In this document: piece after piece, positions 28,897 to 57,639 of the stretch
How the letters are laid out: the number at the start of each line of letters is the position of its first letter
How positions within the stretch are numbered: position 1 is the first letter of the stretch
Assembly (NCBI GenBank): GCA_030035585.1
Contig: CM057462.1
Location: forward strand, 138,720,734-138,784,733
Direction of reading: 5' to 3'
Length of the DNA: 64,000 bases
DNA from: Dugong dugon
Taxonomy: Eukaryota > Chordata > Mammalia > Sirenia > Dugongidae
Program-made: the position numbers and the translations under genes
Notes under the pieces: model-generated
What the model was told of the DNA's origin: nothing
What the model saw: the letters and a program-made list of their open reading frames with translations, nothing else
The model's database searches: none

Positions 28897-30840
28897 GGCT
28901 GAGTTCTGGCAAAATGGCGCTCTAGGCAGAAGCACCACGCCATCCCTCCACAGCAAAGATCCGAAGAACTATGCCGAACAGAGAATACAACAATCCTGAA
29001 ACCCTAAAACATCAAATAAAGAGACAAAGAACTCAGCCAAGCACCAAATGGAGTGAGAAAACTGACAGAGAACGGAGATCGAGGAGAGATTCATGCAGAG
29101 GTCCCCTACCAGCTAACGCAGCGTGGATCCGCCATCTCAGACTCCTATCGGAGACCAACAAACAGGAGGTACGAGAAAGCAGCCTTACAGAGCTTCCAGC
29201 GAGAGACAAAACAACCAGTAATTGGTGATATATGCTTTCCCATGCCCCACACTTCTTCACCCCGACTCAGCCTCCTCTGCTTCCTGCAGCCACAGTCTCT
29301 TGACCGGGAAACAGCAGCTGCTTGGATTCCACACACCTGAACGGGTGGCTGTCTGAGTACCATTTGTTGGCTGCTGGTGTTGCTTTTTTTCTGCTTCTTT
29401 TTATTTCCTCCTTGCCTTTCCCCACCTCCACCTCCTTTAGCTCAAGTACCTCGCTCCGTGTGCCATCGTTGCTTCTTCCTGAGGGGCTGCAGAGCTCCCG
29501 TTATTTGTGATATACGCTTTCCCACTCTCTACACTTCTTCACCCACACTCGGACCCCCTGCTTCCCACGGACACAGTCTTTTGTGCAGAAACACCAGCCT
29601 GCACCAGCTGGCTCTCTGAGTGTCATTTGTTGGCTGCTAGTGTTGCTTTTTTTTTTCACTTCTTTTGACTTCTTACTTGCCTCTCACCATCTCCCCCTCC
29701 CTTCACTCAAGTACCTGCCTCCTTGCGCCATCTTAGCTTCTTCCTGAGGGGCTGCGGAGCTCCGTTGGAGTGTGGGCTGCTGTACTGGTGGGATCCTGGG
29801 GCTTTTGTTCGTTTCTTTGTTTTGAATTGTTGGTTTGTTTTCTTTTCCTTTTCTTGAGTTGGGAGCCCTTTCTGGCCAGGCTGAGCGGCGTGGCAGGGAG
29901 ATGCCCCTTCGACTTCCACAGACGTGCAGAGGGATCCCTGAGGGCATTTCTTTTTATGTTGTTGTTGTTGTTGTTTTTTTCCTGTTCTGTTTCTTTGGGG
30001 GCCTTTCTTGGTTTTTTTTTTTTTTTTTTTTTAATTTGTTTTGTTTTCTTTTTCCCTTTTTGTCTTTCTTCACTGCTCAGTTTCTCGTCTCTCTATATCT
30101 TCCTTCTCTTTCTGTTCCCTGAATACCTGGCTTTGTATACCTCTATGCCTTCTAGCCAGGCTGTACTGCAACACCTGAGAGCGACATCCCCAGACCTCAT
30201 AGCTGCACCGGTGGGATCCTGGAAACTTTGCAGTTCTTTAACCTTTCTGATTCTTATTTATTCATTCTTTTCTTTACTTCCACCTCCCCTTTCTGTTTTT
30301 CTCCATTTCATAGTCTCTCTTCTCTCCACTACAATGGCAAGCTCCCCTAGCATTCTTTTTTGTTTGTATGTTTTTTGGCTCCTGTTCCTCTCCCCTCTCT
30401 CCCATATCCATCTTAGCTCCACACATAAAAATCTCCCCGCTACATCCTGCCTACCTGCACCACGTGCTTGACATCACACCACCAAGCAACACAGGCACAG
30501 CCTACTGGAACTTGCCCTGCACTGATTACCAACCAACTCTGGTGGCTGTAGTAAGTGCCACAAACAACCCGTCCCAGTAACTCCTCTTCAGCTAGACTTG
30601 CCATGCTGTACCATATCTGAGTGACTGACCCTGCCAGTTGAAGAAGGAGGCAAAAAGTATTGTGCCCAAAGATGAGAAAACAACAAAGAACACACAGTCT
30701 GCCTGCTCAGACATAGTCAATTTCTTTCTTTTTAAAAAGGGACAAAACAAACAAATCTACAATCAATAAATGAGACAAATAACTATTGAATGCCCTGAAG
30801 ACAGCAGGCAAAAACAAAACATTTACAAAAACAGGACAGG
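28897..30840 (+). promoter_or_regulatory. L1 5' UTR / internal promoter with repeated units
   Basis: This is the untranslated leader of the younger L1. A YY1-type word, AAAATGGCGC, lies at 28911-28920, 14 bases into the element, which is where L1 promoters of other mammals carry a YY1 site. Two tandem units start at 29227 and 29509 with GATATA(T/C)GCTTTCCCA. Each runs through TGGCTGCT(G/A)GTGTTGCTTTTTT and ends near CCTGAGGGGCTGC(A/G)GAGCTCC. They are about 265-282 bp long and clearly diverged. The second contains GCGCCATCTTA (29725-29735), an antisense YY1-like word. The rest is T-rich and pyrimidine-rich. That it drove transcription is inferred from its position in the element. Confidence 0.75.
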
Positions 30841-31800
30841 ATGGTTCCAGTAGGCGTCCAAAATAAAACACCAGATGACTCTCCTCTGGAAGAAAATGCA
30901 CTAGAAGTACCTCATACGGAATTCAAATCTCTAGCACTTGGAATTCTACAAGAACTGAGGCAAAACGCTGACAAATATGAAGAAAAAATGGACAAATTCA
31001 TGGAAAATACAGACAAAAAATCGGAAGAATTTAGAAAGATGATGCAGGAACAAAATGCCAAAATAAATTCACAACTAGAAATTATACAAAGACAACAATT
31101 AGAAATCCAAAAGATAAACAACAAGCTTTCAGAAACGGATGATGTCATACAAGGGCTGAGAAGCAGATTTGAAACGGTGGAAGACAGGATCAGTGGAATT
31201 GAAGACAAACACTTGGATACAACTCTGTTTCAGGAAAACTCAGAAAAAAGAACAAAGAAAAATGAAGAGACCCTGAGAGTTATGTGGGACACAATTAAAA
31301 GCAAAAATTTATGAATGATCGGAATTCCAGAACAGGGGGAGAAAACAGAAAACACAGAGAGGATCATTGAGGAACTGCTGACAGAAAACTTCACCAGTAT
31401 CATGAAAAATGAAAAGCTGGCCATCCAGGAAGCTCAACGAACCCCATATAGAAGAGACCCCAAAAGAAAATCACCAAGGCATATCATATTCACACTCACC
31501 AAAACCAAAGACAAACAAAGAATCCTGAGAGCAGCTCTTGAAAAACAAGAAGTCACATACAGAGGAGAAACAATAAGACTAAGTTCAGATTATTCGGCAG
31601 AAACCATGCAGGCAAGAAGGCAATGGGATGACATATATAAAATCTTGAAAGAAAAAAATTGCCAGCCAAGAATAATATATCCTGCAAAACTCTCGTTCAA
31701 ATTTGATGGTGAAATTAGGTCATTTCCAGATAAACAGAAATTAAGGGAATATGTAAAAGTCAAACCAGACTTACAAAAATTATTAAAGCAAGTTCTTTGA
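30841..31800 (+). pseudogene. L1 ORF1 (RNA-binding protein), one premature stop
   Basis: This frame of about 319 codons runs from ATG 30841 to the stop at 31798-31800 and is interrupted by one in-frame TGA (31312-31314). ORF1p of mammalian L1s is a trimeric RNA chaperone that packages L1 RNA in the cytoplasm. The N-terminal 157 residues are rich in Glu, Lys and Gln with heptad character (QLEIIQRQQLEIQKINNKL), fitting the coiled coil. After the stop come the RRM-like start IGIPEQGE and the C-terminal domain (RHIIFTLTKTKDKQRIL, DYSAETMQARRQWDDI). The length is close to the family norm. The stop removes the nucleic-acid-binding half, so the copy is inactive. The same stop occurs in the right arm. 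Confidence 0.93.
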
Positions 31801-32266
31801 TCTGAGGACAAACAGCTTCAGATCACAGGCAGAACCTAGGACGCAGGATCGTACCAGTCAGATACCAATCTAGGAAATGAACTCTCGAGGACTATCCAAA
31901 GCCAAAAGAAATACAACAGGGCATCAGAGCAGTTAATCAGTAAATGACAACAACATCAAAATGATAAAAGAGGGAATAAACGGCATAGGTATAGAACCTT
32001 CTAATGGAGAGGAAGGCAAGGCGATACCAAGTAATGGTAGACTGCTTCAAACTGAGAAAGATAAGGGTAAAATTTATGGTAACCACAAAGAAAGTTAACA
32101 AACATACTCATTAAAAAAAAAAGAGAGAGAAAAAACATAAAGTCTCAGCAAAAACAAAACCTACAAAAACAAAAGAAATGAAAAAAAATCCACAAACAAA
32201 GGTAACTCGGCACAAGAGAGTAAGAAGAACAAAGGAAACTTCAGCACCACAAAAAAACACTACGAA

Positions 32267-35200
32267 ATGACAACGACAAACCCACATCTATCAATAATTA
32301 CACTGAATGTAAATGGACTCAATGCACCCATAAAGAGACGGAGAGTGACAGAATGGATAAGAAAACAGGATCCATCAATATGCTGTCTACAGGAGACACA
32401 CCTTAGAAACAAAGATGTGAATTTATTAAAAGTCAAAGGTTGGAAAAAAATATAACAAGCTAACAACTACCAAAAAAGAGCAGGAGTGGCAATTCTAATC
32501 TCAGATAAAATAGACTTTAAACCAAAATCTACCATAAAAGACAAAAAAGGACACTATATAATGATTAAGGGGATGATCCATCATGAAGACATAACCATAA
32601 TAAACATGTACGCACCCAATGACAGGGCTCCAAAATACATAAAACAAACTCTAACAACACTGAAAAGAGAAATTGACAGTTCCACAATAATAGTAGGAGA
32701 CTTCAACACACCACTCTCAGTAAAGGACAGAACAACTAAGAAGAAACTCAGCAAAGATACAGAAGACCTAAAGGGCACAATCAGCCAACTTGACCTCATA
32801 GACATATATAGAACACTCCATCCAACTGCTGCAAAGTACACATTCTTTTCCAATGCACACGGAACATTCTGCAGAATAGACCACATGTTAGGCCACAGAG
32901 CAATCGTCAACAAGATCCAAAACGTTCAGATAATTCAAAGTATCTTCTCTGACCACAATGCCATCAAGGTAGAAATCAACAATAGAAAGAGCAAGGGAAA
33001 ACAATCAACTACATGGAAACTGAATAATACCTTGCTTACACATCACTGGGTAATAGAAGAAATCAGAGATGGAATCAAACAACTCCTAGAATCCAATGAA
33101 AATGAAAACACATCATACCAAAACCTTTGGAAGAGCAAAGGCAGTCCTCAGAGGACAATTTATAGGAATAGATGGACACATCAAAAGAGAAGAAAGGGAC
33201 AAAATCAAAATATTAACTACAGAACTCAAACAAATAGAAACAGAACAGCAAAAAAAGCCCACAACCAGCGGAAGAAAGGAAATAGTAAAGATCAGAACAG
33301 AAATAAATGAAATAGAGAACAGAAAAACAATAGAAAGAATCAACAAGACCAAAAGTTAGTTCTTTGAAAGAATCAACAAAATTGACAAACCACTGGCCAG
33401 GCTGACAAAAGAAAAACAGGAGAGGACACAGATAACCCAAATAAGAAATGAAATGGGGGACATTACAACAGACCCAACCGAAATAAAAAGGATTATAACA
33501 GAATATTAAGAAAAACTATACTCCAACAAATTTGAAAACCTAGAGGAAATGGATAAATTTCTAGAAACACATAGCCTACCCAAACTACAACAAAGTGATG
33601 CTGAAAATCTGAACAGACCCATAACAAGAGAACAGATTGAAAAGGTAATAAAAAATCTCCCAACCAAAAAAAGCCCTGGCCCAGGTGGCTTCACTGAATT
33701 CTACAAAACATTTACAGAAGAGCTTGTACCAGTACTACTCAAGCTATTTCAGAGCATAGAAGAGGAAGCAACACTTACAAATTCATTCTATGAAGCCAGC
33801 ATAACGCTGATACCAAAACCAGGCAAAGACGTCACAAAAAAGAAAATTATAGACCAATATCTCTCATGAATATAGATGCAAAAATTCTGAACAAAATTCT
33901 AGCCAATAGAATCCATCATCATATCAAAAAAATAATACACCACGACCAAGTAGGATTCATACCAGGTATGCAAGGATGGTTCAACATTAGAAAATCAATC
34001 AACGTAATCCACCACATAAATAAAAGGAAAGAAAAGAATCACATGATCATCTCAATTGATACAGAAAAGGCATTTGACAAAGTCCAACACCCATTCCTGA
34101 TAAAAACTCTCAATCAAATAGGTATGGAAGGGGAATATCTCAACATAATAAAGGGCATCTATGCAAAACCAACAGCCAACATCATTCTTAATGGAGAGAG
34201 GCTGAAAACATTCCCCTTGAAAACAAGAACAAGACAAGGATGCCCTTTATCACCACTCCTATTTAACACTGTGCTGGAAGTTCTAGCTAGAGCAATAAGG
34301 CAAGAAAAAGAAATAAAGGGCATCCAAATTGGTAATGAAGATGTTAAACTGTCCCTGTTTGCAGATGATATGATGCTCTACACAGAAAACCCTAAAGACT
34401 CCACGAGAAATCTACTGGAACTAATTGAAAGATTCAGCAGAGTAGCAGGATACAAAAATCACTTGGATTCCTATACACCAATAAGGAGAACAATGAAAAG
34501 GAAATCAGGAAAACAATACCATTTTCAAAAACCCCTAAAAAGATAAGATACTTAGGAATAAATCTGACCAGGGATGTAAAAGACCTATACAAAGAAAACT
34601 ACAAAACACTACTGCGAGAAACCCAAAGAGATCTACATAAATGGAAAAACATACCATGCTCATGGATAGGCTGACTCAACATTGTGAAAATGACAATTCT
34701 ACCCAAAGAAATTTACAAATACAACACAATCCTGATCCAAATGCCAACAACATTCTTCAAAGAGTTGGAAAAACTAATCATTAACTTTATATGGAAAGGG
34801 AAGAAACCCCAAATAAGTAAAGCACTAGTGAAGAAGAAGAATAAAGTTGGAGGACTCACACTACCTGACTTCAGAACCTACTATACAGCTACAGTAGTCA
34901 AAATAACCTGGTACTGGTACAACGACAGATACATTGACCAATGGAACAGAATTGAGAACCCAGATGTAAATCCATCCACCTACGTTCACCTGATCTTCGA
35001 CAAAGGCCCAAAGTCCATCAAATGGGGAAAATACAATCTTCTTAAGAAATGGTGCTGGCAAAATTGGATACCCATCTGCAAAAAAATGAAACAGGACCCA
35101 TACCTCACACTGTATACAAATACTACTTCAAAATGGATCAAAGACCTGAATATAAAGCCTAAAACTATAAAGTTCATAGAAGAAAAAATAGGACCAACAC

Positions 35201-36072
35201 TTCAGGCCTTAATACATGGCATTAACAGGATACAAACCATAACCATCAATGCACAAAACCCAACAGATAAGCTAGATAACTGGGATCTTCTAAAAATCAA
35301 ATACCTATGCTCTTCAAAAGACTTCACCAAAAGAGTCAAAAGAGAACCTACAGACTGGGAAAAAATTTTTGGACAGTACAAGTGAGACAAAGGTCTAATC
35401 TCCATAATCTACAAGAAAATCCAACACCTCTACAACAAAAAGGCAAACAGTCCTATTAAAAAATGGGCAAAGGAAATGAACAGACACTTCACCAAAGAAG
35501 ACATTCAAATGGCCAACAGACACAAGAGGAAATGCTCGTGAACACTAGCCATTAGAGAAATGCAAATTAAAACCACAATGAGATACCATCTCACCCCAGC
35601 ATTACTGGCACGAATCAAGAACACTGGAAATAACAAATGTTGGAGGGGCTGCAGGGAGATCGGAACACTTATGCACTGTTGGTGGGAATGCAAAATGATG
35701 CAACCATTTTGGAAAATGATATGGCGCTTCCTCAGAAAGCTAGAAATAGACATACCATTTGATCCAGCAATTCCACTCCTAGGAATATATCCTAGAGAAA
35801 TAAGAGTCGTCACTCGAGTAGACATATGCACACCTATGTTCATGGCAGCATTGTTCACAATAGCAAAACGATGGAAACAACTTAGATGTCCATCAACAGA
35901 TGAATGGATAAACAAACTATGGTACATACACACAATGCAGTACTATGCAACGAGAAAGAGCAACAATGAATCTGTGAACCATCTCATAACATGGATGAAA
36001 CTGGAGGACATTAAGCTGAGTGAAATAAGTCAATCACAAAAGGACAAATATTGTATGAGACCTCTATTGTAA
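32267..36072 (+). pseudogene. L1 ORF2 (endonuclease / reverse transcriptase), multiply broken
   Basis: This is a relic of about 1,268 codons; human ORF2p has 1,275. ORF2p nicks DNA and primes reverse transcription at the nick. Visible parts in order: apurinic-type endonuclease (TLNVNGLNAP, CCLQETHL, VGDFNTPL, SDHNAIKVEI); reverse transcriptase ([46 protein letters not shown]); C-terminal cysteine-rich region (KCWRGC ... [13 protein letters not shown]). Lesions: an in-frame stop at 32453; a frame change near 33130; stops near 33357 and 33506; a frame change near 33840; a short deletion with frame change near 34455; stops at 35383 and near 35539. The catalytic FADD is intact but cannot be translated in one protein. 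Identical lesions occur in the right arm. Confidence 0.93.
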
Positions 36073-37254
36073 AAACCCATGAAAAAGTTCACACACAAAA
36101 TGTAACAATCTTTGTTGGTTACCTGGGATGGGAGGGGTGGGGTGGGGGGAATACTAAATAGATTAGTGGTATCTTGGGTGAAGGGTGAGACAGTACACAA
36201 TACAGGGGAAACGAGCACAACTTGTCCAAGGAAAGGTCATGGAAGCCCCATAGACACATCCAAACTCCCTGAGGGACTGAATTGCTTGGTGGAGAGCTCT
36301 GGGGACCATGGTCTCAGGGAACATCTAGCTCAATTGGCATGACACAGCTTATAAAGACAATGCTCTCCATTCTACCTTGGTGAGTAGTGTCTGGGGTCTT
36401 AAAAGCCTGTGAGCAGCCATCTAAGATACTCCACTGGTCTCATCCCTTCAGGAGCAAGTGAGAATGAAGAGGACAGGATACAAGGAAGAGATTAGTCCAA
36501 AGGACTAATTGTCCACAACTACAAAGGCCTTCACCGGACTGAGTCCAGTACAGCTAGATGGTGCCCGGCTACCACCACTCACTGCTCTGATCAGGATCAC
36601 AACGGAGGGTTCTGGACAGAGCTGGAGAAGGATGTAGAGCATAATTCTAGCTCACAAAAAAAAAAAAAGACCAGATTTAGTGGCCTAAAGGAGACTGGAG
36701 AAACCCCGAGAGTATGGCCCCCAGACACCCTTTTAGCTCAGTGGTGAAGTTACCTCCGAGGTTCACTGTTCAGTCTGGGAGTGGACAGCCCCATAAAACC
36801 AAATGAGACTAACGAGATACAGGAGTCCATTGACAAGGGCCAGAAAGCAGAACGGGAGAAGGAAGCTTGTGATAAGGAACCCAAGTTTGAGTAAGGCTAT
36901 TGTTGATGTGTTGTGAGATTGTTAACCATTGTCATAGGGCAACATTTGTAGTTACTGTTACATGAGAAACTATTTTGTTCTGTAAGCCTTCATCTTAAGT
37001 GAGAATAACAGCACAATTGGAAGAGAGTAGTCAATGTCACTGAACTGTGCATGTAGAAATTTTTGAAATGGTGTATCTTTGGCTATGTGTAGTTTCACCA
37101 AAAAAAAAAAAAAAAAAAAAGACGTTGAGAAGTTAGAGGGTTAATATGTTGTGGGGTTGTTAACCAATGTTATAAAACAACATGTGTAGTTCTGCTTCGT
37201 GAGAAACTATTTGTTCTGCAAGCCTTCACTTGAAGTACAATAAAAAAAAAAAAA
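36073..37254 (+). other. Mosaic L1 3' UTR with an internal second L1 tail
   Basis: Three modules are visible. The first (about 36073-37000) is an L1 3' UTR ending CTGTAAGCCTTCATCTTAAG. The second (about 37003-37120) is the 3' end of a different L1 type (CACAATTGGAAG ... GTAGTTTCACC) with its own 21-base A run. The third (about 37121-37254) repeats the end of the first module (TTGTTAACCAATG ... GCAAGCCTTCACTTGAAG) with AATAAA and the final A tail. The same order occurs in the minus-strand host L1 (42364-42700) and at 62697-64000. The L1 tail at 7238-8090 lacks the middle module. Confidence 0.85.
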
Positions 37255-40200
37255 TTTACCATGATCAAGTGGGATTTATACCAGGTATGCAGGGATGGTC
37301 TAACATTAGAAAAACAATCAATGTAATCCATCACATAAGTAAAACAAAAGACAAGAACCACTTGATCTTATCAATCGATGCAGAAAAGTCATTTGGCAAA
37401 GTCCAACACCCATTCATGATAAAAACTCTCAACAAAATAGAAATAGAAGGGAAATTCCTGCATATAATTAAGGGCATTTATACAAATGCAATAGCCAACA
37501 TCATCCTAAATGGAGAAACTTTGAAATCATTCTCCTTGAGACCAGGAACCAGACAAGGATGCCCTTTATCTCTACTCTTATTCAACATTGTTCTGGAGGT
37601 CCTAGCCAGAGCCATTAGGCTAGAAAAAGAAATAAAGGGCATCCAAATTAGTAGGGAAGAAGTCAAAGTCTCTCTGTTTGCAGATATATAATCTGATACA
37701 CAGAAAACCCCAAAGAATCCACAAGAAAACTAGTGGAACTAATAGAAGATTTCAGCAAAGTTTTAGGATACAAGATAAACATACAAAAACCAGTTGGATG
37801 CCTTTACACCAACAAAGAGAACCTCGAAGATGAACTTACCAAATCAATACCATTGACAATAGCCCCCAAGAAGATAAAATACTTAGGAATAAATCTAACC
37901 AGAGACATAAAAGATCTATACAATGAAAACTACAAGACACTACTGCAAGAAACCTAAAGAGACCTGCATAAGCAGAACAACATACCTTGCTCATGGATAG
38001 GTAGACTCAATATAGTGAAAATGTCAGTTCTACCCAAAGCGATCTACAGTTACAATACAATCCCCATCCAAATTCCACTGGCATTTTTTTAATGAGATGG
38101 AGAAACAAATCACCAACTTCATATGGAAAGGGAAGAGGCCCCGAATAAGTAAAGCATTACTCAAGAAGAAGAACAAAGTGGGAGGCCTGACACTACCTGA
38201 TTTTAGAACCTATTATACCGCCATGGTAGTCAAAACAGCCTGGTATTGGTACAACAACAGATACATAGACCAATGGAACAGAAGTGATAATCCAGACATA
38301 AATCCATCCACCTATGAGCAGCTGATATTTGACAAAGGCCTGAAGTCCGTTAACTGGGGAAAAGACAGTCTGTTTAACAAATGCTGCTGGCATAACTGGA
38401 TATCCGTCTGCAAAAAACTGAAACAAGACCCATACCTCACACAATTCCTAAAAACTAACTTAAAATGAATTGAAGACTGAAATATAAAATTGAAAACAAT
38501 AAAGATCGTGGAAGACAAAATAGGGACAATGCTAGGAGCTCTGATACATGGCATAAACACAATACGAACCATAAGTAACAATGCACAAGCATCAGAAGAG
38601 AGATAGATAAATGGGAGCTCCTAAAAATCAAAAACACTTATGCTCATCAAAAGACTTCACCAAAAGAGTAAAAAGACAACCTACAGACTGGGAAAAAATT
38701 TTTGGCTATGACAAATCCGATCAGTGTCTAATCTCTAAAATCTACAAGATACTGCAAAACCTCATCAACAGAAAGTCAAATAACCCAATTAAAAATGGGA
38801 AAAGGATATGAACAGGCACTCCACAAAGAGGATATTCAGGCAGTAACAGACACATGAAGAAATGCTCACGATCATTAGCCATTAGAGAAATGCAGAGCAA
38901 AACTACAATGAGATATCATCTCACCCCAAGACTAGTCTTAATCCGAAAACCACAAAATAATAAATGCTGGAGAGGTTGTGGAGGGACTGGAACACTTATA
39001 CACTGTTAGTGGGAATGTAAAATGGTACAACCACTTTGGAAATCAATTTGGTGCTTCCTTAAAAAGCTCGAAACAGAAGTACCATATGATCAAGCTATCT
39101 CGCTCCTTGGAATATACCCTAGAGAAATAAGAGCCGTCACAAGAATAGATATATGCACACCCATGTTCATTTCAGCACTGCTCACAATAGCAAAAAATGG
39201 AAACAACTGAGGTGCGCATCAACGGATGAATGGATAAACAATTATGGTGTATCCACACAATAGAATACTATGCAATGATAAAGAACAATGATGAAGTCGT
39301 GAAACTTCTTATAACATGGAGGAAGCTGGAGGTCATTATGCTGAGTGAATTTAGTCAGTCCCAGAAGGACAAATATTGTACAAGACCACTATTATAAGAA
39401 CTCAAGAAAAGGTTTAAACTCAGAAGAAAACATTCTTTGATGGTTATGAGGCTGGGGAAGGAGGGTGAGGGTTATTCACTAACTATATAGCAGACAAGTA
39501 TTATCTTAGGTGAAGGGAAGGACAACACACACTATAGGGAAAGTCAGCACAACCGGACCAAACCAAAGCTAAGAAGTTTCCTGAATACAATCAAACACTT
39601 TGAGGGACACAGTAGTAGGGGTAGGGGTCTGGGGACCATACTTTCAGGGCACATCTAGGTAAATTGGCATAACAAACTCATTAAGAAAATGTTCTACATC
39701 CTACTTTGGTGAGTGGTGTCTGAGTTCTTAAAAGCTTGCAAGCGGCCATCTAAGATGCATCAATTAGTCCCAACCACTTGGAGTAAAGGAGAACAAAGAA
39801 CACCAAAGACACAAGGAAAGTATTAGCCCAAGAGACAGAATGGGCCATGTAAACCAGATACTTCATCAGCCTGAGACCAGAAGAACTAGATGGTGCCCAG
39901 CTACCACCAATGACCACCCTGACAGGGAACACAACAGAGAGTCCCTGATGGAGCAGGAGAAAGGTGGGGTGCAGATCTCAAATTCTAGTCAGAAGACCAG
40001 ACTTAATGGTCTGACTGAGACTGGAGGAACCCCAGAAAGCATGACCCCTGGATTCTCTATCAGCACAGAACTAAAATAATTTCTGAGGCCAACTCTTCAG
40101 ACAAGGATTGGACTGGACTGTGGGACATAAAGTGATACTCGTGAGGAGTGTGCTTCTTAGCTCAGGTAGATACAAGAGACTAAACGGGCAGCTTCTGTCC

Positions 40201-40370
40201 ATAGGTGGGATGGGAAGGCAGAGAGCGTTAGGAGCTGGTTGAATGGACATGGGGAATCAGGGGTGGAAAGGAGGAGTGTGTGCTGTCACAGTATGTGGAG
40301 AGCAATTAGAGTCACAAAACAATGTACATGTAAATTTTTGTATGGGACAAAATTTTTAAAAATGTTGAAG
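37255..40370 (+). mobile_element. Older L1, 3' half (reverse transcriptase onward, 3' UTR)
   Basis: This resumes exactly where 28896 broke off, at the conserved [13 protein letters not shown] stretch. The ORF2 relic covers about 37255-39400: open pieces 37230-37691, 37733-37957, 38097-38468 and 38611-38811, then the cysteine-rich end near 38960-39210. The catalytic box reads LFAD followed by a frameshift and stop (about 37676-37690), so the second catalytic aspartate is lost. The 3' UTR runs from about 39400 to 40365 and contains GTGAGTGGTGTCTGAGTTCTT-type L1 tail sequence and a decayed A-rich end. The two halves together make about 6.8 kb, a full-length L1. Confidence 0.9.
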
Positions 40371-40563
40371 GATATAGTGCTAGAAGATAAGACCCCTAGG
40401 TTGCAAGGCAGTCAGAAATACTCAGTGGCTGCAACAATGAACTTGAGCATATTAACAAGCATGAAGATGGCACAGGGCCAGGCAATGTTTTGTTCTGTCG
40501 TACATGGGGTTGCCATTAGTTGGAGCCAACTCGACAGCAATTAACAACAACAACCATAACAAA
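40371..40563 (+). mobile_element. RTE-type non-autonomous element, 3' part
   Basis: It continues from GATATAGTGC(T)AGAAG, the same word at which the 5' part stops at 25225. It ends in a tail shared with AfroSINEs (GTTGCCATTAGTTGGAGCC, ACTCGACAGCAATTAACAAC). The 9-bp target duplication ATAGAGAAT follows at 40564-40572. No reverse transcriptase is present between the two parts once the L1s are removed, so this is a short non-autonomous derivative. Confidence 0.65.
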
Positions 40564-40572
40564 ATAGAGAAT

Positions 40573-41407
40573 AGGAGCGAATACTGTGAAATGAAATCGT
40601 TTAACACATGGACTAGACACAGTCTGGAGGGTCAGGGAAGGCTTTCCTGAGCAGGTGATGTTTAAGATGAGGCTCAAAAGACAAGAAAGAAGGAGTCAGC
40701 CTGGTATAGGGAGGATGATGGTGTTGAGGAGAGAGGTTGGCAAGAATACATTCCTTGCAACTAAAACATCATATGTGAAGGCCTTGAGGCATAAAGAGTA
40801 TGGCACATTTAGAGAAGCAGAAAAGGTCCCCCAAGGCTGGAGAATAAAAAGGAAGGAAGGAGAGTAGCAAGAGACAGAAATGGAGAACTTGGCAGAGGGT
40901 CTTCGAGGTCTTGTCATATATTTTCGACTTTATTCTAAGGACAAGAAGAAGACTTCGAAGGATTTACAAGGAATTGGCATTGGGTTTTTAAAAACTCCTT
41001 CCGGCTCCTGTGTGAAGGATGGACTGGAGATGAGCAAGAATGGAAGCTGAGGAGGCCATTGCAATAATCCAGTGGGAGGTGGTAATGGTCTTGATCCAGA
41101 TGGTGGCAGTGGGAAAAATAGAGAAGTGGACAGACTTGAGATGTGTTTTGGTGATAGAATTGACTGGAAGTTGCTGAGGAATTGGATTTGCAGTAAATCG
41201 AAGTTGACCCTTAGGTTTTATGAGTAACTAGCTGGATAGTGATACCATTTTTTGAGAACTGGAAGATGGAAAGGAATGGAGGTGACTCCGAAATACAAGG
41301 TTTTTCTTGGAAGGGGAAACCATGAGCTCCACTGTAGCTATGTTTGAGTCTGAGATGTCTGAGCCATTCAAGTGCAGACGTTAAGTAGGTTGTTTTTGTA
41401 TGTTTGT
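40573..41407 (-). mobile_element. L2 fossil, second part
   Basis: This is the continuation of the L2 relic at 24805-25001. Antisense L2 hallmarks are TCAGGGAAGGCTTTCCTGAG, GACTTTATTCTAAGGACAAG and GCCATTGCAATAATCCAGTG. It encodes nothing on its own. The inverted-repeat homology ends inside it, at 41407, where no repeat boundary is evident. The copied tract therefore stopped at an arbitrary site. Confidence 0.75.
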
Positions 41408-42350: not shown

Positions 42351-46483
<4,133 letters not shown>

Positions 46484-46685
46484 ATTCTCTATTTTGTTAT
46501 GGTTGTTGTTGTTAATTGCTGTCGAGTTGGCTCCAACTAATGGCAACCCCATGTACGACAGAACAAAACATTGCCTGGCCCTGTGCCATCTTCATGCTTG
46601 TTAATATGCTCAAGTTCATTGTTGCAGCCACTGAGTATTTCTGACTGCCTTGCAACCTAGGGGTCTTATCTTCTAGCACTATATC
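46484..46685 (-). mobile_element. RTE-type element 3' part, inverted copy, plus lone target duplication
   Basis: This is the mirror of 40371-40572. It keeps ATTCTCTAT (46484-46492), the reverse complement of the 9-bp duplication, but the partner copy and the RTE 5' part are absent on this side. An orphaned half like this can only be secondary. Confidence 0.65.
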
Positions 46686-49600
46686 CTTCAACATTTTTAA
46701 AAATTTTGTCCCATACAAAAATTTACATGTACATTGTTTTGTGACTCTAATTGCTCTCCACATACTGTGACAGCACACACTCCTCCTTTCCACCCCTGAT
46801 TCCCCATGTCCATTCAACCAGCTCCTAACGCTCTCTGCCTTCCCATCCCACCTATGGACAGAAGCTGCCCGTTTAGTCTCTTGTATCTACCTGAGCTAAG
46901 AAGCACACTCCTCACGAGTATCACTTTATGTCCCACAGTCCAGTCCAATCCTTGTCTGAAGAGTTGGCCTCAGAAATTATTTTAGTTCTGTGCTGATAGA
47001 GAATCCAGGGGTCATGCTTTCTGGGGTTCCTCCAGTCTCAGTCAGACCATTAAGTCTGGTCTTCTGACTAGAATTTGAGATCTGCACCCCACCTTTCTCC
47101 TGCTCCATCAGGGACTCTCTGTTGTGTTCCCTGTCAGGGTGGTCATTGGTGGTAGCTGGGCACCATCTAGTTCTTCTGGTCTCAGGCTGATGAAGTATCT
47201 GGTTTACATGGCCCATTCTGTCTCTTGGGCTAATACTTTCCTTGTGTCTTTGGTGTTCTTTGTTCTCCTTTACTCCAAGTGGTTGGGACTAATTGATGCA
47301 TCTTAGATGGCCGCTTGCAAGCTTTTAAGAACTCAGACACCACTCACCAAAGTAGGATGTAGAACATTTTCTTAATGAGTTTGTTATGCCAATTTACCTA
47401 GATGTGCCCTGAAAGTATGGTCCCCAGACCCCTACCCCTACTACTGTGTCCCTCAAAGTGTTTGATTGTATTCAGGAAACTTCTTAGCTTTGGTTTGGTC
47501 CGGTTGTGCTGACTTTCCCTATAGTGTGTGTTGTCCTTCCCTTCACCTAAGATAATACTTGTCTGCTATATAGTTAGTGAATAACCCTCACCCTCCTTCC
47601 CCAGCCTCATAACCATCAAAGAATGTTTTCTTCTGAGTTTAAACCTTTTCTTGAGTTCTTATAATAGTGGTCTTGTACAATATTTGTCCTTCTGGGACTG
47701 ACTAAATTCACTCAGCATAATGACCTCCAGCTTCCTCCATGTTATAAGAAGTTTCACGACTTCATCATTGTTCTTTATCATTGCATAGTATTCTATTGTG
47801 TGGATACACCATAATTGTTTATCCATTCATCCGTTGATGCGCACCTCAGTTGTTTCCATTTTTTGCTATTGTGAGCAGTGCTGAAATGAACATGGGTGTG
47901 CATATATCTATTCTTGTGACGGCTCTTATTTCTCTAGGGTATATTCCAAGGAGCGAGATAGCTTGATCATATGGTACTTCTGTTTCGAGCTTTTTAAGGA
48001 AGCACCAAATTGATTTCCAAAGTGGTTGTACCATTTTACATTCCCACTAACAGTGTATAAGTGTTCCAGTCCCTCCACAACCTCTCCAGCATTTATTATT
48101 TTGTGGTTTTCGGATTAAGACTAGTCTTGGGGTGAGATGATATCTCATTGTAGTTTTGCTCTGCATTTCTCTAATGGCTAATGATCGTGAGCATTTCTTC
48201 ATGTGTCTGTTACTGCCTGAATATCCTCTTTGTGGAGTGCCTGTTCATATCCTTTTCCCATTTTTAATTGGGTTATTTGACTTTCTGTTGATGAGGTTTT
48301 GCAGTATCTTGTAGATTTTAGAGATTAGACACTGATCGGATTTGTCATAGCCAAAAATTTTTTCCCAGTCTGTAGGTTGTCTTTTTACTCTTTTGGTGAA
48401 GTCTTTTGATGAGCATAAGTGTTTTTGATTTTTAGGAGCTCCCATTTATCTATCTCTCTTCTGATGCTTGTGCATTGTTACTTATGGTTCGTATTGTGTT
48501 TATGCCATGTATCAGAGCTCCTAGCGTTGTCCCTATTTTGTCTTCCACGATCTTTATTGTTTTCAATTTTATATTTCAGTCTTCAATTCATTTTAAGTTA
48601 GTTTTTAGGAATTGTGTGAGGTATGGGTCTTGTTTCAGTTTTTTGCAGACGGATATCCAGTTATGCCAGCAGCATTTGTTAAACAGACTGTCTTTTCCCC
48701 AGTTAACGGACTTCAGGCCTTTGTCAAATATCAGCTGCTCATAGGTGGATGGATTTATGTCTGGATTATCACTTCTGTTCCATTGGTCTATGTATCTGTT
48801 GTTGTACCAATACCAGGCTGTTTTGACTACCATGGCGGTATAATAGGTTCTAAAATCAGGTAGTGTCAGGCCTCCCACTTTGTTCTTCTTCTTGAGTAAT
48901 GCTTTACTTATTCGGGGCCTCTTCCCTTTCCATATGAAGTTGGTGATTTGTTTCTCCATCTCATTAAAAAAATGCCAGTGGAATTTGGATGGGGATTGTA
49001 TTGTAACTGTAGATCGCTTTGGGTAGAACTGACATTTTCACTATATTGAGTCTACCTATCCATGAGCAAGGTATGTTGTTCTGCTTATGCAGGTCTCTTT
49101 AGGTTTCTTGCAGTAGTGTCTTGTAGTTTTCATTGTATAGATCTTTTATGTCTCTGGTTAGATTTATTCCTAAGTATTTTATCTTCTTGGGGGCTATTGT
49201 CAATGGTATTGATTTGGTAAGTTCATCTTCGAGGTTCTCTTTGTTGGTGTAAAGGCATCCAACTGGTTTTTGTATGTTTATCTTGTATCCTAAAACTTTG
49301 CTGAAATCTTCTATTAGTTCCACTAGTTTTCTTGTGGATTCTTTGGGGTTTTCTGTGTATCAGATTATATATCTGCAAACAGAGAGACTTTGACTTCTTC
49401 CCTACTAATTTGGATGCCCTTTATTTCTTTTTCTAGCCTAATGGCTCTGGCTAGGACCTCCAGAACAATGTTGAATAAGAGTAGAGATAAAGGGCATCCT
49501 TGTCTGGTTCCTGGTCTCAAGGAGAATGATTTCAAAGTTTCTCCATTTAGGATGATGTTGGCTATTGCATTTGTATAAATGCCCTTAATTATATGCAGGA

Positions 49601-49801
49601 ATTTCCCTTCTATTTCTATTTTGTTGAGAGTTTTTATCATGAATGGGTGTTGGACTTTGCCAAATGACTTTTCTGCATCGATTGATAAGATCAAGTGGTT
49701 CTTGTCTTTTGTTTTACTTATGTGATGGATTACATTGATTGTTTTTCTAATGTTAGACCATCCCTGCATACCTGGTATAAATCCCACTTGATCATGGTAA
49801 A
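46686..49801 (-). mobile_element. Older L1 3' half, inverted copy
   Basis: This is the mirror of 37255-40370, with the same disrupted LFAD box (about 49366-49380) and the same open pieces (49365-49826, 48588-48959 and others). No 5' half of this L1 exists on this side. One substitution relative to the left copy was seen, at 48526. Confidence 0.93.
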
Positions 49802-50981
49802 TTTTTTTTTTTTTATTGTACTTCAAGTGAAGGCTTGCAGAACAAATAGTTTCTCACGAAGCAGAACTACACATGTTGTTTTATAACATTGGTTAACAAC
49901 CCCACAACATATTAACCCTCTAACTTCTCAACGTCTTTTTTTTTTTTTTTTTTTTGGTGAAACTACACATAGCCAAAGATACACCATTTCAAAAATTTCT
50001 ACATGCACAGTTCAGTGACATTGACTACTCTCTTCCAATTGTGCTGTTATTCTCACTTAAGATGAAGGCTTACAGAACAAAATAGTTTCTCATGTAACAG
50101 TAACTACAAATGTTGCCCTATGACAATGGTTAACAATCTCACAACACATCAACAATAGCCTTACTCAAACTTGGGTTCCTTATCACAAGCTTCCTTCTCC
50201 CGTTCTGCTTTCTGGCCCTTGTCAATGGACTCCTGTATCTCGTTAGTCTCATTTGGTTTTATGGGGCTGTCCACTCCCAGACTGAACAGTGAACCTCGGA
50301 GGTAACTTCACCACTGAGCTAAAAGGGTGTCTGGGGGCCATACTCTCGGGGTTTCTCCAGTCTCCTTTAGGCCACTAAATCTGGTCTTTTTTTTTTTTGT
50401 GAGCTAGAATTATGCTCTACATCCTTCTCCAGCTCTGTCCAGAACCCTCCGTTGTGATCCTGATCAGAGCAGTGAGTGGTGGTAGCCGGGCACCATCTAG
50501 CTGTACTGGACTCAGTCCGGTGAAGGCCTTTGTAGTTGTGGACAATTAGTCCTTTGGACTAATCTCTTCCTTTTATCCTGTCCTCTTCATTCTCACTTGC
50601 TCCTGAAGGGATGAGACCAGTGGAGTATCTTAGATGGCTGCTCACAGGCTTTTAAGACCCCAGACACTACTCACCAAGGTAGAATGGAGAGCATTGTCTT
50701 TATAAGCTGTGTCATGCCAATTGAGCTAGATGTTCCCTGAGACCATGGTCCCCAGAGCTCTCCACCAAGCAATTCAGTCCCTCAGGGAGTTTGGATGTGT
50801 CTATGGGGCTTCCATGACCTTTCCTTGGACAAGTTGTGCTCGTTTCCCCTGTATTGTGTACTGTCTCACCCTTCACCCAAGATACCACTAATCTATTTAG
50901 TATTCCCCCCACCCCACCCCTCCCATCCCAGGTAACCAACAAAGATTGTTACATTTTGTGTGTGAACTTTTTCATGGGTTT

Positions 50982-53900
50982 TTACAATAGAGGTCTCATA
51001 CAATATTTGTCCTTTTGTGATTGACTTATTTCACTCAGCTTAATGTCCTCCAGTTTCATCCATGTTATGAGATGGTTCACAGATTCATTGTTGCTCTTTC
51101 TCGTTGCATAGTACTGCATTGTGTGTATGTACCATAGTTTGTTTATCCATTCATCTGTTGATGGACATCTAAGTTGTTTCCATCGTTTTGCTATTGTGAA
51201 CAATGCTGCCATGAACATAGGTGTGCATATGTCTACTCGAGTGACGACTCTTATTTCTCTAGGATATATTCCTAGGAGTGGAATTGCTGGATCAAATGGT
51301 ATGTCTATTTCTAGCTTTCTGAGGAAGCGCCATATCATTTTCCAAAATGGTTGCATCATTTTGCATTCCCACCAACAGTGCATAAGTGTTCCGATCTCCC
51401 TGCAGCCCCTCCAACATTTGTTATTTCCAGTGTTCTTGATTCGTGCCAGTAATGCTGGGGTGAGATGGTATCTCATTGTGGTTTTAATTTGCATTTCTCT
51501 AATGGCTAGTGTTCACGAGCATTTCCTCTTGTGTCTGTTGGCCATTTGAATGTCTTCTTTGGTGAAGTGTCTGTTCATTTCCTTTGCCCATTTTTTAATA
51601 GGACTGTTTGCCTTTTTGTTGTAGAGGTGTTGGATTTTCTTGTAGATTATGGAGATTAGACCTTTGTCTCACTTGTACTGTCCAAAAATTTTTTCCCAGT
51701 CTGTAGGTTCTCTTTTGACTCTTTTGGTGAAGTCTTTTGAAGAGCATAGGTATTTGATTTTTAGAAGATCCCAGTTATCTAGCTTATCTGTTGGGTTTTG
51801 TGCATTGATGGTTATGGTTTGTATCCTGTTAATGCCATGTATTAAGGCCTGAAGTGTTGGTCCTATTTTTTCTTCTATGAACTTTATAGTTTTAGGCTTT
51901 ATATTCAGGTCTTTGATCCATTTTGAAGTAGTATTTGTATACAGTGTGAGGTATGGGTCCTGTTTCATTTTTTTGCAGATGGGTATCCAATTTTGCCAGC
52001 ACCATTTCTTAAGAAGATTGTATTTTCCCCATTTGATGGACTTTGGGCCTTTGTCGAAGATCAGGTGAATGTAGGTGGATGGATTTACATCTGGGTTCTC
52101 AATTCTGTTCCATTGGTCAATGTATCTGTCGTTGTACCAGTACCAGGTTATTTTGACTACTGTAGCTGTATAGTAGGTTCTGAAGTCAGGTAGTGTGAGT
52201 CCTCCAACTTTATTCTTCTTCTTCACTAGTGCTTTACTTATTTGGGGTTTCTTCCCTTTCCATATAAAGTTAATGATTAGTTTTTCCAACTCTTTGAAGA
52301 ATGTTGTTGGCATTTGGATCAGGATTGTGTTGTATTTGTAAATTTCTTTGGGTAGAATTGTCATTTTCACAATGTTGAGTCAGCCTATCCATGAGCATGG
52401 TATGTTTTTCCATTTATGTAGATCTCTTTGGGTTTCTCGCAGTAGTGTTTTGTAGTTTTCTTTGTATAGGTCTTTTACATCCCTGGTCAGATTTATTCCT
52501 AAGTATCTTATCTTTTTAGGGGTTTTTGAAAATGGTATTGTTTTCCTGATTTCCTTTTCATTGTTCTCCTTATTGGTGTATAGGAATCCAAGTGATTTTT
52601 GTATCCTGCTACTCTGCTGAATCTTTCAATTAGTTCCAGTAGATTTCTCGTGGAGTCTTTAGGGTTTTCTGTGTAGAGCATCATATCATCTGCAAACAGG
52701 GACAGTTTAACATCTTCATTACCAATTTGGATGCCCTTTATTTCTTTTTCTTGCCTTATTGCTCTAGCTAGAACTTCCAGCACAGTGTTAAATAGGAGTG
52801 GTGATAAAGGGCATCCTTGTCTTGTTCTTGTTTTCAAGGGGAATGTTTTCAGCCTCTCTCCATTAAGAATGATGTTGGCTGTTGGTTTTGCATAGATGCC
52901 CTTTATTATGTTGAGATATTCCCCTTCCATACCTATTTGATTGAGAGTTTTTATCAGGAATGGGTGTTGGACTTTGTCAAATGCCTTTTCTGTATCAATT
53001 GAGATGATCATGTGATTCTTTTCTTTCCTTTTATTTATGTGGTGGATTACGTTGATTGATTTTCTAATGTTGAACCATCCTTGCATACCTGGTATGAATC
53101 CTACTTGGTCGTGGTGTATTATTTTTTTGATATGATGATGGATTCTATTGGCTAGAATTTTGTTCAGAATTTTTGCATCTATATTCATGAGAGATATTGG
53201 TCTATAATTTTCTTTTTTGTGACGTCTTTGCCTGGTTTTGGTATCAGCGTTATGCTGGCTTCATAGAATGAATTTGTAAGTGTTGCTTCCTCTTCTATGC
53301 TCTGAAATAGCTTGAGTAGTACTGGTACAAGCTCTTCTGTAAATGTTTTGTAGAATTCAGTGAAGCCACCTGGGCCAGGGCTTTTTTTGGTTGGGAGATT
53401 TTTTATTACCTTTTCAATCTGTTCTCTTGTTATGGGTCTGTTCAGATTTTCAGCATCACTTTGTTGTAGTTTGGGTAGGCTATGTGTTTCTAGAAATTTA
53501 TCCATTTCCTCTAGGTTTTCAAATTTGTTGGAGTATAGTTTTTCTTAATATTCTGTTATAATCCTTTTTATTTCGGTTGGGTCTGTTGTAATGTCCCCCA
53601 TTTCATTTCTTATTTGGGTTATCTGTGTCCTCTCCTGTTTTTCTTTTGTCAGCCTGGCCAGTGGTTTGTCAATTTTGTTGATTCTTTCAAAGAACTAACT
53701 TTTGGTCTTGTTGATTCTTTCTATTGTTTTTCTGTTCTCTATTTCATTTATTTCTGTTCTGATCTTTACTATTTCCTTTCTTCCGCTGGTTGTGGGCTTT
53801 TTTTGCTGTTCTGTTTCTATTTGTTTGAGTTCTGTAGTTAATATTTTGATTTTGTCCCTTTCTTCTCTTTTGATGTGTCCATCTATTCCTATAAATTGTC

Positions 53901-54787
53901 CTCTGAGGACTGCCTTTGCTCTTCCAAAGGTTTTGGTATGATGTGTTTTCATTTTCATTGGATTCTAGGAGTTGTTTGATTCCATCTCTGATTTCTTCTA
54001 TTACCCAGTGATGTGTAAGCAAGGTATTATTCAGTTTCCATGTAGTTGATTGTTTTCCCTTGCTCTTTCTATTGTTGATTTCTACCTTGATGGCATTGTG
54101 GTCAGAGAAGATACTTTGAATTATCTGAACGTTTTGGATCTTGTTGACGATTGCTCTGTGGCCTAACATGTGGTCTATTCTGCAGAATGTTCCGTGTGCA
54201 TTGGAAAAGAATGTGTACTTTGCAGCAGTTGGATGGAGTGTTCTATATATGTCTATGAGGTCAAGTTGGCTGATTGTGCCCTTTAGGTCTTCTGTATCTT
54301 TGCTGAGTTTCTTCTTAGTTGTTCTGTCCTTTACTGAGAGTGGTGTGTTGAAGTCTCCTACTATTATTGTGGAACTGTCAATTTCTCTTTTCAGTGTTGT
54401 TAGAGTTTGTTTTATGTATTTTGGAGCCCTGTCATTGGGTGCGTACATGTTTATTATGGTTATGTCTTCATGATGGATCATCCCCTTAATCATTATATAG
54501 TGTCCTTTTTTGTCTTTTATGGTAGATTTTGGTTTAAAGTCTATTTTATCTGAGATTAGAATTGCCACTCCTGCTCTTTTTTGGTAGTTGTTAGCTTGTT
54601 ATATTTTTTTCCAACCTTTGACTTTTAATAAATTCACATCTTTGTTTCTAAGGTGTGTCTCCTGTAGACAGCATATTGATGGATCCTGTTTTCTTATCCA
54701 TTCTGTCACTCTCCGTCTCTTTATGGGTGCATTGAGTCCATTTACATTCAGTGTAATTATTGATAGATGTGGGTTTGTCGTTGTCAT
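50982..54787 (-). pseudogene. L1 ORF2, inverted copy, same lesions
   Basis: This is the mirror of 32267-36072. Endonuclease, reverse transcriptase (LFADDMMLY) and cysteine-rich regions are recognisable, and the stops and frame changes match the left copy one for one. One codon differs: Val on the left and Ile here, in NPSTY(V/I)HLIF (34984/52070). No part is translatable as a full protein. Confidence 0.93.
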
Positions 54788-55253
54788 TTCGTAGTGTTTT
54801 TTTGTGGTGCTGAAGTTTCCTTTGTTCTTCTTACTCTCTTGTGCCGAGTTACCTTTGTTTGTGGATTTTTTTTCATTTCTTTTGTTTTTGTAGGTTTTGT
54901 TTTTGCTGAGACTTTATGTTTTTTCTCTCTCTTTTTTTTTTAATGAGTATGTTTGTTAACTTTCTTTGTGGTTACCATAAATTTTACCCTTATCTTTCTC
55001 AGTTTGAAGCAGTCTACCATTACTTGGTATCGCCTTGCCTTCCTCTCCATTAGAAGGTTCTATACCTATGCCGTTTATTCCCTCTTTTATCGTTTTGATG
55101 TTGTTGTCATTTACTGATTAACTGCTCTGATGCCCTGTTGTATTTCTTTTGGCTTTGGATAGTCCTCGAGAGTTCATTTCCTAGATTGGTATCTGACTGG
55201 TACGATCCTGCGTCCTAGGTTCTGCCTGTGATCTGAAGCTGTTTGTCCTCAGA

Positions 55254-56213
55254 TCAAAGAACTTGCTTTAATAATTTTTGTAAGTCTGGTTTGACTTTTA
55301 CATATTCCCTTAATTTCTGTTTATCTGGAAATGACCTAATTTCACCATCAAATTTGAACGAGAGTTTTGCAGGATATATTATTCTTGGCTGGCAATTTTT
55401 TTCTTTCAAGATTTTATATATGTCATCCCATTGCCTTCTTGCCTGCATGGTTTCTGCCGAATAATCTGAACTTAGTCTTATTGTTTCTCCTCTGTATGTG
55501 ACTTCTTGTTTTTCAAGAGCTGCTCTCAGGATTCTTTGTTTGTCTTTGGTTTTGGTGAGTGTGAATATGATATGCCTTGGTGATTTTCTTTTGGGGTCTC
55601 TTCTATATGGGGTTCGTTGAGCTTCCTGGATGGCCAGCTTTTCATTTTTCATGATACTGGTGAAGTTTTCTGTCAGCAGTTCCTCAATGATCCTCTCTGT
55701 GTTTTCTGTTTTCTCCCCCTGTTCTGGAATTCCGATCATTCATAAATTTTTGCTTTTAATTGTGTCCCACATAACTCTCAGGGTCTCTTCATTTTTCTTT
55801 GTTCTTTTTTCTGAGTTTTCCTGAAACAGAGTTGTATCCAAGTGTTTGTCTTCAATTCCACTGATCCTGTCTTCCACCGTTTCAAATCTGCTTCTCAGCC
55901 CTTGTATGACATCATCCGTTTCTGAAAGCTTGTTGTTTATCTTTTGGATTTCTAATTGTTGTCTTTGTATAATTTCTAGTTGTGAATTTATTTTGGCATT
56001 TTGTTCCTGCATCATCTTTCTAAATTCTTCCGATTTTTTGTCTGTATTTTCCATGAATTTGTCCATTTTTTCTTCATATTTGTCAGCGTTTTGCCTCAGT
56101 TCTTGTAGAATTCCAAGTGCTAGAGATTTGAATTCCGTATGAGGTACTTCTAGTGCATTTTCTTCCAGAGGAGAGTCATCTGGTGTTTTATTTTGGACGC
56201 CTACTGGAACCAT
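55254..56213 (-). pseudogene. L1 ORF1, inverted copy, same premature stop
   Basis: This is the mirror of 30841-31800: 157 codons, a TGA (55740-55742), then 161 codons. The protein pieces are identical to those on the left. Sharing the stop shows descent from a single already inactivated copy. The coiled coil comes first, then the RNA-binding and C-terminal domains after the stop. Confidence 0.93.
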
Positions 56214-56309
56214 CCTGTCCTGTTTTTGTAAATGTTTTGTTTTTGCCTGCTGTCTTCAGGGCATTCAATAGTTATTTGTCTCATTTATTGATTGTAGATT
56301 TGTTTGTTT

Positions 56310-56631
56310 CATCCCGGTTGTTTTGTCTCCCACTGGACGCTCCATGAGGCTGCTTTCTTGTACCTCCATTTTCTGATCTCCGATAGGAGTCCAAGATGGT
56401 GGATCCGCACTGTGTTAGCTGGTAGGGGTCCTCTGCATGAATCTCTCCTCGCTCTCCGTTCTCTGTCAGTTTCTTCACTCCATTTGGTGCTTGGCTGAGT
56501 TCTTTATCTCTTTATTTGATGTTTTAGAGTTTCAGGATTGTTGTATTCTCTGTTCAGCTTAGTTTTTCGGATCTTTGCTGTGGAGGGACGGCGTGGTGCT
56601 TCTGCCGAGAGTGCTATTTTGCCGGAAGTCC
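56310..56631 (-). mobile_element. Host L1, 5' end piece
   Basis: Read on the minus strand it starts GGACTTCCGGCAAAATAGC at 56631 and matches the first 320 bases of the younger L1 leader (28897-29217), but with many differences. It is therefore not part of the near-identical repeat. It ends at 56310 against the copied arm. The YY1-type word is degraded (AAAATAGCAC). Upstream of the element lies AAATC and an A/T run, a plausible L1 endonuclease site (TTT/AAA). Confidence 0.85.
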
Positions 56632-57605: not shown

Positions 57606-57639
57606 GGTAAAATAATCTGTGGATTTTCTGTGTGTGTGT

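What the first reader, a model, noticed from the sequence alone, without database searches (positions are those of the whole stretch)
30745..56309. Giant near-identical inverted repeat: two 10.66-kb arms around 4.24 kb
Positions pair as x + y = 87054 to 87056 over the entire arm length. By eye only four substitutions and two one-base A-run differences separate the arms, so the event is very recent or the arms are still being homogenised. Inverted repeats of this size and identity are rare outside sex chromosomes and ampliconic loci and tend to be unstable.
Basis: seen in the sequence. Interest (0 to 1): 0.88.

Follow-up and report, generated by a model that had tools for sequence, protein, structure and literature searches.

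The report
Recent inverted duplication between two LINE-1s
A 10.7-kb piece of what looks like elephant DNA was recently copied backwards into a neighbouring jumping-gene relic, probably by faulty repair of a broken chromosome; the type of event is known from human disease and here its footprints are unusually readable.

Summary
The arms are mostly LINE-1. The left arm is the original: there an old L1 (L1-O) is split by a nested L1 (L1-A) with a 17-bp target-site duplication (TSD), and only the left side keeps both halves and both TSD copies. The right arm is the inverted copy. It sits between an L1 5' end (56316-56630) and an L1 3' half (42372-45650) on the same strand, with complementary extents; I read these as the ends of one broken L1 whose ~3.09-kb middle was replaced. 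The outer junction is in register between L1s; the inner has 0-2 bp of microhomology. Best mechanism: break, strand invasion into inverted L1-A, 10.7 kb of copying, end joining. This matches the human DUP/INV-NML-DEL (1-2-1-0-1) class (PMC10766186). Identity begins within ~6 bp of where the flanking L1s lose homology, hinting at homogenisation. The own-genome search did not complete, so assembly error, polymorphism and chromosome are untested.

The parts
26054..28886 (+). 5' portion of the old L1 (L1-O), outside the repeat; matches L1-A 31084-33932
   Evidence: 77.2% identity to L1-A
28880..28896 (+). 5' copy of the L1-A target-site duplication, AAAAAAAAAAATTTACC
   Evidence: exact match at 28880 and 37244
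28897..37240 (+). L1-A (ends approximate): full-length-type L1 nested in L1-O; broken ORF1 (Transposase_22, Tnp_22_dsRBD) and ORF2 (endonuclease, RVT_1) pieces; long 5'UTR
   Evidence: Pfam hits, TSD, collinearity with L1-C
29218..30739 (+). 1,522-bp 5'UTR block with GT...AG ends, present in L1-A and absent from L1-B
   Evidence: alignment; junction comparison
30745..41407 (+). left arm, the original copy: L1-A body, L1-O 3' half, 1,446 bp of non-L1 flank
37244..37260 (+). 3' copy of the L1-A target-site duplication
   Evidence: the right arm carries only the corresponding 3' copy (about 49796-49812, minus)
37245..39961 (+). L1-O 3' half, inside the arm; matches L1-A 33926-36629
   Evidence: 78.3% identity; RVT_1
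41408..42371 (.). single-copy part of the spacer, continuous with the left arm
   Evidence: no second copy in the window at the sensitivity of the self-BLAST (28-base words); sequence
42372..45650 (-). L1-C: L1 3' half with an open ORF2 stretch of 533 codons; its 5' end is the inner junction
   Evidence: 93.8% identity to L1-A 33831-37240; RVT_1
45648..45651 (.). inner junction: copied flank (ending ...TATGTTTGT) joined to L1-C, 0-2 bp microhomology
45649..56309 (-). right arm, the derived inverted copy
56310..56316 (.). outer junction: L1-B sequence passes in register into L1-A body sequence
   Evidence: alignments
56316..56630 (-). L1-B: first ~315 bp of an L1 5'UTR; its upstream flank shows no match to L1-O in the self-BLAST
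   Evidence: 89.8% identity to L1-A 28901-29216

Best explanation
The inverted repeat is a replacement-type inverted duplication made by repair. Inferred starting state: left to right, L1-O with L1-A nested in it (+), about 2.4 kb of non-L1 flank, then a full-length L1 of a related type in the opposite orientation (L1-BC, -). L1-BC broke. The end carrying its 5'UTR paired with the homologous stretch of inverted L1-A and primed copying of L1-A body, L1-O 3' half and 1.45 kb of flank (10.66 kb). The new strand was released and joined, with 0-2 bp of microhomology, to the other broken end of L1-BC in mid-ORF2. Net result: 10.66 kb gained in inverted orientation, about 3.09 kb of L1-BC lost, and 4.24 kb of unchanged sequence between. 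Shown: the repeat, the nested L1 with both TSD copies on the left only (so left is the original), L1 homology at the outer junction, lack of homology at the inner one. Inferred: that L1-B and L1-C are halves of one L1, and the repair steps. No function is claimed for the arms; the expected consequences are structural (gene conversion, inversion of the spacer, instability), from general knowledge, not tested here.
For: Arms and junctions. The 17-bp TSD of L1-A occurs at 28880 and 37244 on the left but only in its 3' form in the right arm, and L1-O's 5' half lies only on the left, so the copy went left to right. L1-B and L1-C lie on one strand, flank the copy, and cover complementary parts of an L1 (first 315 bp; everything 3' of L1-A position 33831). 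Their divergence from L1-A outside CpG (7.1% and 5.4%) is far below that of L1-O (20.6-22.0%). The outer junction is in register; the inner one joins unrelated sequences. 2 of 5 arm differences can be polarised with third copies (34984: L1-C and L1-O; 36481: three other L1 copies); in both the right arm has the new base. The same pattern, one junction at a low-copy repeat and one with 2 bp, is tabulated for human F8 as DUP/INV-NML-DEL, 1-2-1-0-1 (PMC10766186, passages).
Against: The union of L1-B and L1-C is not proven: the candidate TSD (AAAAAAAAAAATCT before L1-B, AAAAAAAAAGTCT after L1-C) has one mismatch, is low in complexity, and 5 of 50 A-runs of 8 or more in the window are followed by TCT anyway. 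Raw divergence from L1-A differs between them (K2P 0.111 for 315 bp of L1-B, 0.065 for L1-C). A switch at a random point in the lost L1 segment would leave a visibly L1-BC-specific stretch; only about 6 bp is seen (chance 0.3-0.5%), so a simple one-step copy needs added conversion or heteroduplex correction. At 38530 the 76%-alike L1-A copy carries C, the right arm's base, and L1-C carries A, so there the left base may be the new one. No chromosome without the event was available.
Confidence: 0.72

Rival explanations
1. [quoted passage not shown] This shares the whole anatomy with the best explanation and overlaps with it.
For: The final structure would be the same; PMC10766186 (section 6 and passages) derives 1-2-1-0-1 structures from inverted triplications, and PMC4352052 and PMC6902434 (abstracts) describe homeology-driven template switches.
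Against: ODIRA needs an unseen inverted triplication and further events. The sequence cannot separate these routes from break repair.
Confidence: 0.2
2. Assembly artefact: haplotype copies or chimeric reads joined in inverted orientation.
For: 99.95% identity is in the range of allelic difference (general knowledge); the only indels lie in A-runs, where sequencing errors are common. No reads or second assembly could be checked.
Against: The window has no N. A missed-adapter or fold-back read would give no asymmetric 4.24-kb spacer. The inner join links unrelated sequences, and the two flanking L1 pieces are complementary ends of an L1 on one strand; neither follows from a simple misjoin.
Confidence: 0.08
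3. Retrotransposition: the right arm is an L1-A transcript with a spliced 5'UTR and long 3' read-through, reinserted.
For: The L1-B/arm junction lacks a block with GT...AG ends, and the copied segment starts in an L1 and runs into its 3' flank.
Against: The L1-B 5'UTR is 10% diverged from L1-A while the rest is 0.05% diverged; there is no poly(A) at the copy's 3' end.
Confidence: 0.02
4. L1-C is an independent, 5'-truncated L1 that happened to insert at the centre of an existing palindrome.
For: 5'-truncated L1s are common (recalled); L1-C starts exactly at the inner edge of the arm.
Against: No shared stretch of 5 or more bases between the 30 and 32 bases examined on its two sides, so no TSD seen; it requires insertion exactly at the repeat junction.
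Confidence: 0.04

Closest known systems
DUP/INV-NML-DEL (copy pattern 1-2-1-0-1) rearrangements, e.g. a human Factor 8 / Xq28 case tabulated in PMC10766186 (passages)
   Same: Inverted copy of a segment, unchanged stretch, then deletion; one junction at a homologous repeat, the other at 2 bp.
   Different: Here the homologous pair is two ordinary LINE-1s rather than a low-copy repeat, the copied segment is 10.7 kb, no gene is known to be hit, and the event sits in an assembled genome sequence rather than a patient.
Mammalian X/Y palindromes (e.g. PMC8981503, passages)
   Same: Large inverted arms around a spacer; identity 99.95%, equal to the 99.953% median given for 12 conserved primate X palindromes.
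   Different: Arms 10.7 kb against a median of 37 kb, made mostly of L1, no gene detected in a limited search, chromosome and age unknown, gene conversion not shown directly.
SpIRE (spliced integrated retrotransposed LINE-1), PMC5860796 (abstract and section 7)
   Same: L1-B lacks an internal 5'UTR block whose ends in L1-A are GT...AG with a pyrimidine tract.
   Different: Concerns only the L1-B fragment, not the palindrome; human SpIREs use other sites; a subfamily that simply lacks the block is equally possible.

Membership tests
DUP/INV-NML-DEL inverted duplication | a segment present twice, second copy inverted, separated by copy-neutral sequence | tested here: met
   in the window the non-L1 arm part matches only its two places apart from one 205-bp match at 77%; copy number elsewhere in the genome not tested
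DUP/INV-NML-DEL inverted duplication | a deletion next to the inserted inverted copy | tested here: inconclusive
   L1-B and L1-C together lack the L1 middle (about 3.09 kb), but that they were one L1 is inferred; TSD weak
DUP/INV-NML-DEL inverted duplication | one junction within an inverted homologous repeat pair, the other with little or no homology | tested here: met
   outer junction in register between L1s; inner 0-2 bp
Sex-chromosome type palindrome | arm identity above 99% over many kb | tested here: met
   5 substitutions in 10,661 aligned bases
Sex-chromosome type palindrome | location on X or Y | not testable with these tools
   own-genome search did not complete
Sex-chromosome type palindrome | testis-expressed or ampliconic gene in the arms | tested here: inconclusive
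   0 of 6 further ORFs, only one of them in the arm outside L1, gave a Pfam match; short exons would be missed
Sex-chromosome type palindrome | arm-to-arm gene conversion | tested here: inconclusive
   identity begins within ~6 bp of the heterology edge (0.3-0.5% expected for a random switch); compatible with correction during the event itself
SpIRE | precise loss of a GT-AG intron from the 5'UTR in an otherwise full-length L1 copy with TSD | tested here: inconclusive
   block 29218-30739 has GT-AG ends, but the L1-B junction shows 3 mismatches in 16 bp to the spliced L1-A form and the element is incomplete

The most novel reading that the evidence does not exclude
The palindrome is older than its 0.05% divergence suggests and is being homogenised by arm-to-arm gene conversion whose outer limit is set by a transposon heterology: a 1.5-kb 5'UTR block present in one flanking L1 and absent from the other. 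The L1 pair that triggered the duplication would then also delimit the conversion tract.
Probability: 0.35. Interest if true: 0.5.

Novelty: new member of a known kind. Interest (0 to 1): 0.38.

Why it matters
It shows how two ordinary LINE-1s in opposite orientation could seed a large, almost perfect inverted repeat in one step. The donor side, direction of copying, entry point and exit point can be read from one sequence because a nested L1 with its TSD marks the original. It also makes a prediction testable in any elephant assembly, and offers a natural case for asking what sets the edge of conversion between palindrome arms.

Tried and rejected
Retrocopy with spliced 5'UTR and 3' read-through: rejected because the 5'UTR is 10% diverged and the copy has no poly(A) at its end. 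Independent insertion of L1-C at the palindrome centre: no TSD seen. Right arm as the original: rejected because L1-O's 5' half and the 5' TSD exist only on the left. A spacer flip after the event: not needed, since L1-B and L1-C already lie on one strand and the single-copy spacer part continues the left arm; not excluded by a direct test.

TSD linking L1-B and L1-C: looked for, only weak. GC content as a sign of old conversion: the non-L1 part of the arm is 43.6% GC against a mean of 38.4% in 305 overlapping flank windows, 3.9% of which are as high; suggestive at best, so not used. Rfam (gathering thresholds) and tRNA scans found nothing. TRF gave 6 rows, all at 5462-27387, none in the arms. 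Six ORFs of 123-244 codons (4 in the flanks, 1 in the L1-A 5'UTR, 1 in the arm) gave 0 of 6 Pfam matches; the flanks were not scanned exon by exon, so genes there may be missed. Of the 8 L1 ORF pieces, 5 matched an L1-type family above Pfam's cut-off, 2 matched only DUF1664 below its cut-off (probably coiled coil) and 1 matched nothing. Paper searches whose listings showed nothing on this locus and no elephant catalogue of palindromes: (titles and abstract starts only).
Full report
CHECK OF THE OBSERVATION. Self-comparison of the window finds the repeat as described: 30745-41407 pairs with 45649-56309, 10,663 and 10,661 bp, with five substitutions (not four) and two one-base differences in A-runs. 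The spacer is 4,241 bp.

WHAT THE ARMS ARE. They are mostly LINE-1. Of 8 ORF pieces from the locus, 5 match L1-type families above Pfam's cut-off: the ORF1 domains Transposase_22 and Tnp_22_dsRBD, the endonuclease, and the reverse transcriptase RVT_1; 2 match only DUF1664 below its cut-off and 1 matches nothing. Three kinds of L1 lie at the locus. L1-O is old (77.2% and 78.3% identical to L1-A) and is split in two: 26054-28886 and 37245-39961. L1-A is nested between these halves, with the target-site duplication AAAAAAAAAAATTTACC at 28880 and at 37244. The third kind is represented by two pieces on the minus strand: L1-B (56316-56630, the first 315 bp of an L1, 89.8% to L1-A) and L1-C (42372-45650, the 3' half, 93.8% to L1-A). 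The rest of the arm, 39962-41407, is non-L1 sequence, found in the window only at its two places except for one 205-bp match at 77%. The host is very probably an elephant: apart from a protein labelled Pseudomonas on a 3.8-kb contig (91%), the L1-C ORF2 matches an African elephant protein at 73% and an Asian elephant one at 71%, against at most 68% identity for the other rows among the 120 listed of 1,687 hits.

WHICH ARM IS THE ORIGINAL. Only the left side has L1-O's 5' half, L1-A's own 5'UTR and both copies of the TSD. The right arm has L1-O's 3' half and the 3' TSD copy, but beyond its outer edge come L1-B and unrelated flank. So the left is the original. Of the five differences between arms, two can be polarised with third copies, and in both the right arm carries the new base: at 34984, G in L1-C and in L1-O (whose two arm copies agree); at 36481, C in 3 of 3 other L1 copies. 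At 31962 only a 12-bp third match exists (T, as on the left). At 38530 the 76%-alike third copies carry C (L1-A, both arm copies) and A (L1-C); C is the right arm's base, so the left base may be the new one there. 41379 has no third copy.

THE TWO JUNCTIONS. Outer: reading on the minus strand, L1-B runs to ...ACAACCGGGATG and passes in register into the L1-A body at AAACAAACAAATC. L1-A itself has a further 1,522 bp (29218-30739) at this point, with GT...AG ends. Inner: the copied non-L1 flank ends ...TATGTTTGT and is followed by CACAAAAAAAG of L1-C, equivalent to L1-A position about 33831. L1-A reads GTCACAAAAAAG there, so at most 2 bp (GT) could have been shared; L1-O reads differently. One junction is thus homologous and the other is not.

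MECHANISM. The most economical reading is that L1-B and L1-C are the two ends of one L1, L1-BC, whose middle (L1-A positions 30745-33830, about 3.09 kb) was lost in a break. The L1-B end invaded the homologous, inverted L1-A; 10.66 kb was copied; the new end was joined to L1-C. This is the pattern 1-2-1-0-1. PMC10766186 (passages) tabulates a human Factor 8 case as DUP/INV-NML-DEL with junctions 'LCR; 2 bp' and exactly this pattern; section 6 of that paper describes such structures and offers a different route through an inverted triplication. PMC4352052 and PMC6902434 (abstracts only) describe homeology-driven template switching, the former at inverted repeats. Sequence alone does not separate break repair from replicative template switching. 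The union of L1-B and L1-C is inferred: complementary extents, one strand, similar divergence class, but only a weak TSD (5 of 50 A-runs of 8 or more are followed by TCT).

RECENT OR HOMOGENISED. Without conversion, 5/10,661 gives about 107 ky (35-249) at 2.2e-9 or 234 ky (76-547) at 1e-9 per site per year (rates recalled). But identity with L1-A starts within about 6 bp of the point where L1-A and L1-B cease to be collinear. If the copy had started at a random place in the lost 3,086 bp, a stretch of L1-BC-specific sequence should remain; its complete absence beyond 30744 has a probability of 0.3-0.5% at 11-6.5% divergence. So sequence was probably converted up to the edge of homology, either during the event or by later exchange between the arms. 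The identity equals the median of 12 conserved primate X palindromes (99.953%, PMC8981503, passages), but that is no evidence of chromosome or of age.

LIMITS. The own-genome search was unreachable six times. No eukaryotic genome, read set or outgroup could be consulted. Assembly error, polymorphism, chromosome and the empty site are therefore untested. Outside the L1s the window was searched for genes only through six ORFs.

VERDICT. A real feature of the sequence, ordinary in kind, unusually legible in detail: an inverted duplication that best fits the DUP/INV-NML-DEL kind, seeded by two inverted LINE-1s.

Noticed in passing
56316-56630 and 29218-30739: L1-B lacks a 1,522-bp 5'UTR block that L1-A has; the block has GT...AG ends and a pyrimidine tract, so L1-B may derive from a spliced L1 RNA (SpIRE-like) or from a subfamily without the block.
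   Followed up: partly
43882-45480 (minus): The closest protein to the L1-C ORF2 (91%) is annotated as a Pseudomonas sp. MOB-449 protein on a 3.8-kb contig; as elephant proteins follow at 73% and 71% identity, this looks like elephant-type DNA contaminating a bacterial assembly.
   Followed up: no
43882-45480 (minus): L1-C keeps an ORF2 stretch of 533 codons without a stop although it is about 6% diverged from L1-A.
   Followed up: no
57409-57610, 11239-11374, 60522-60665: SINE-like copies (the second and third are 80% and 77% identical to the first) that resemble, from recall, the tRNA-derived SINEs of Afrotheria.
   Followed up: partly
22940-23049: Short GC-rich tandem array of 25/50-bp units outside the repeat.
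   Followed up: no
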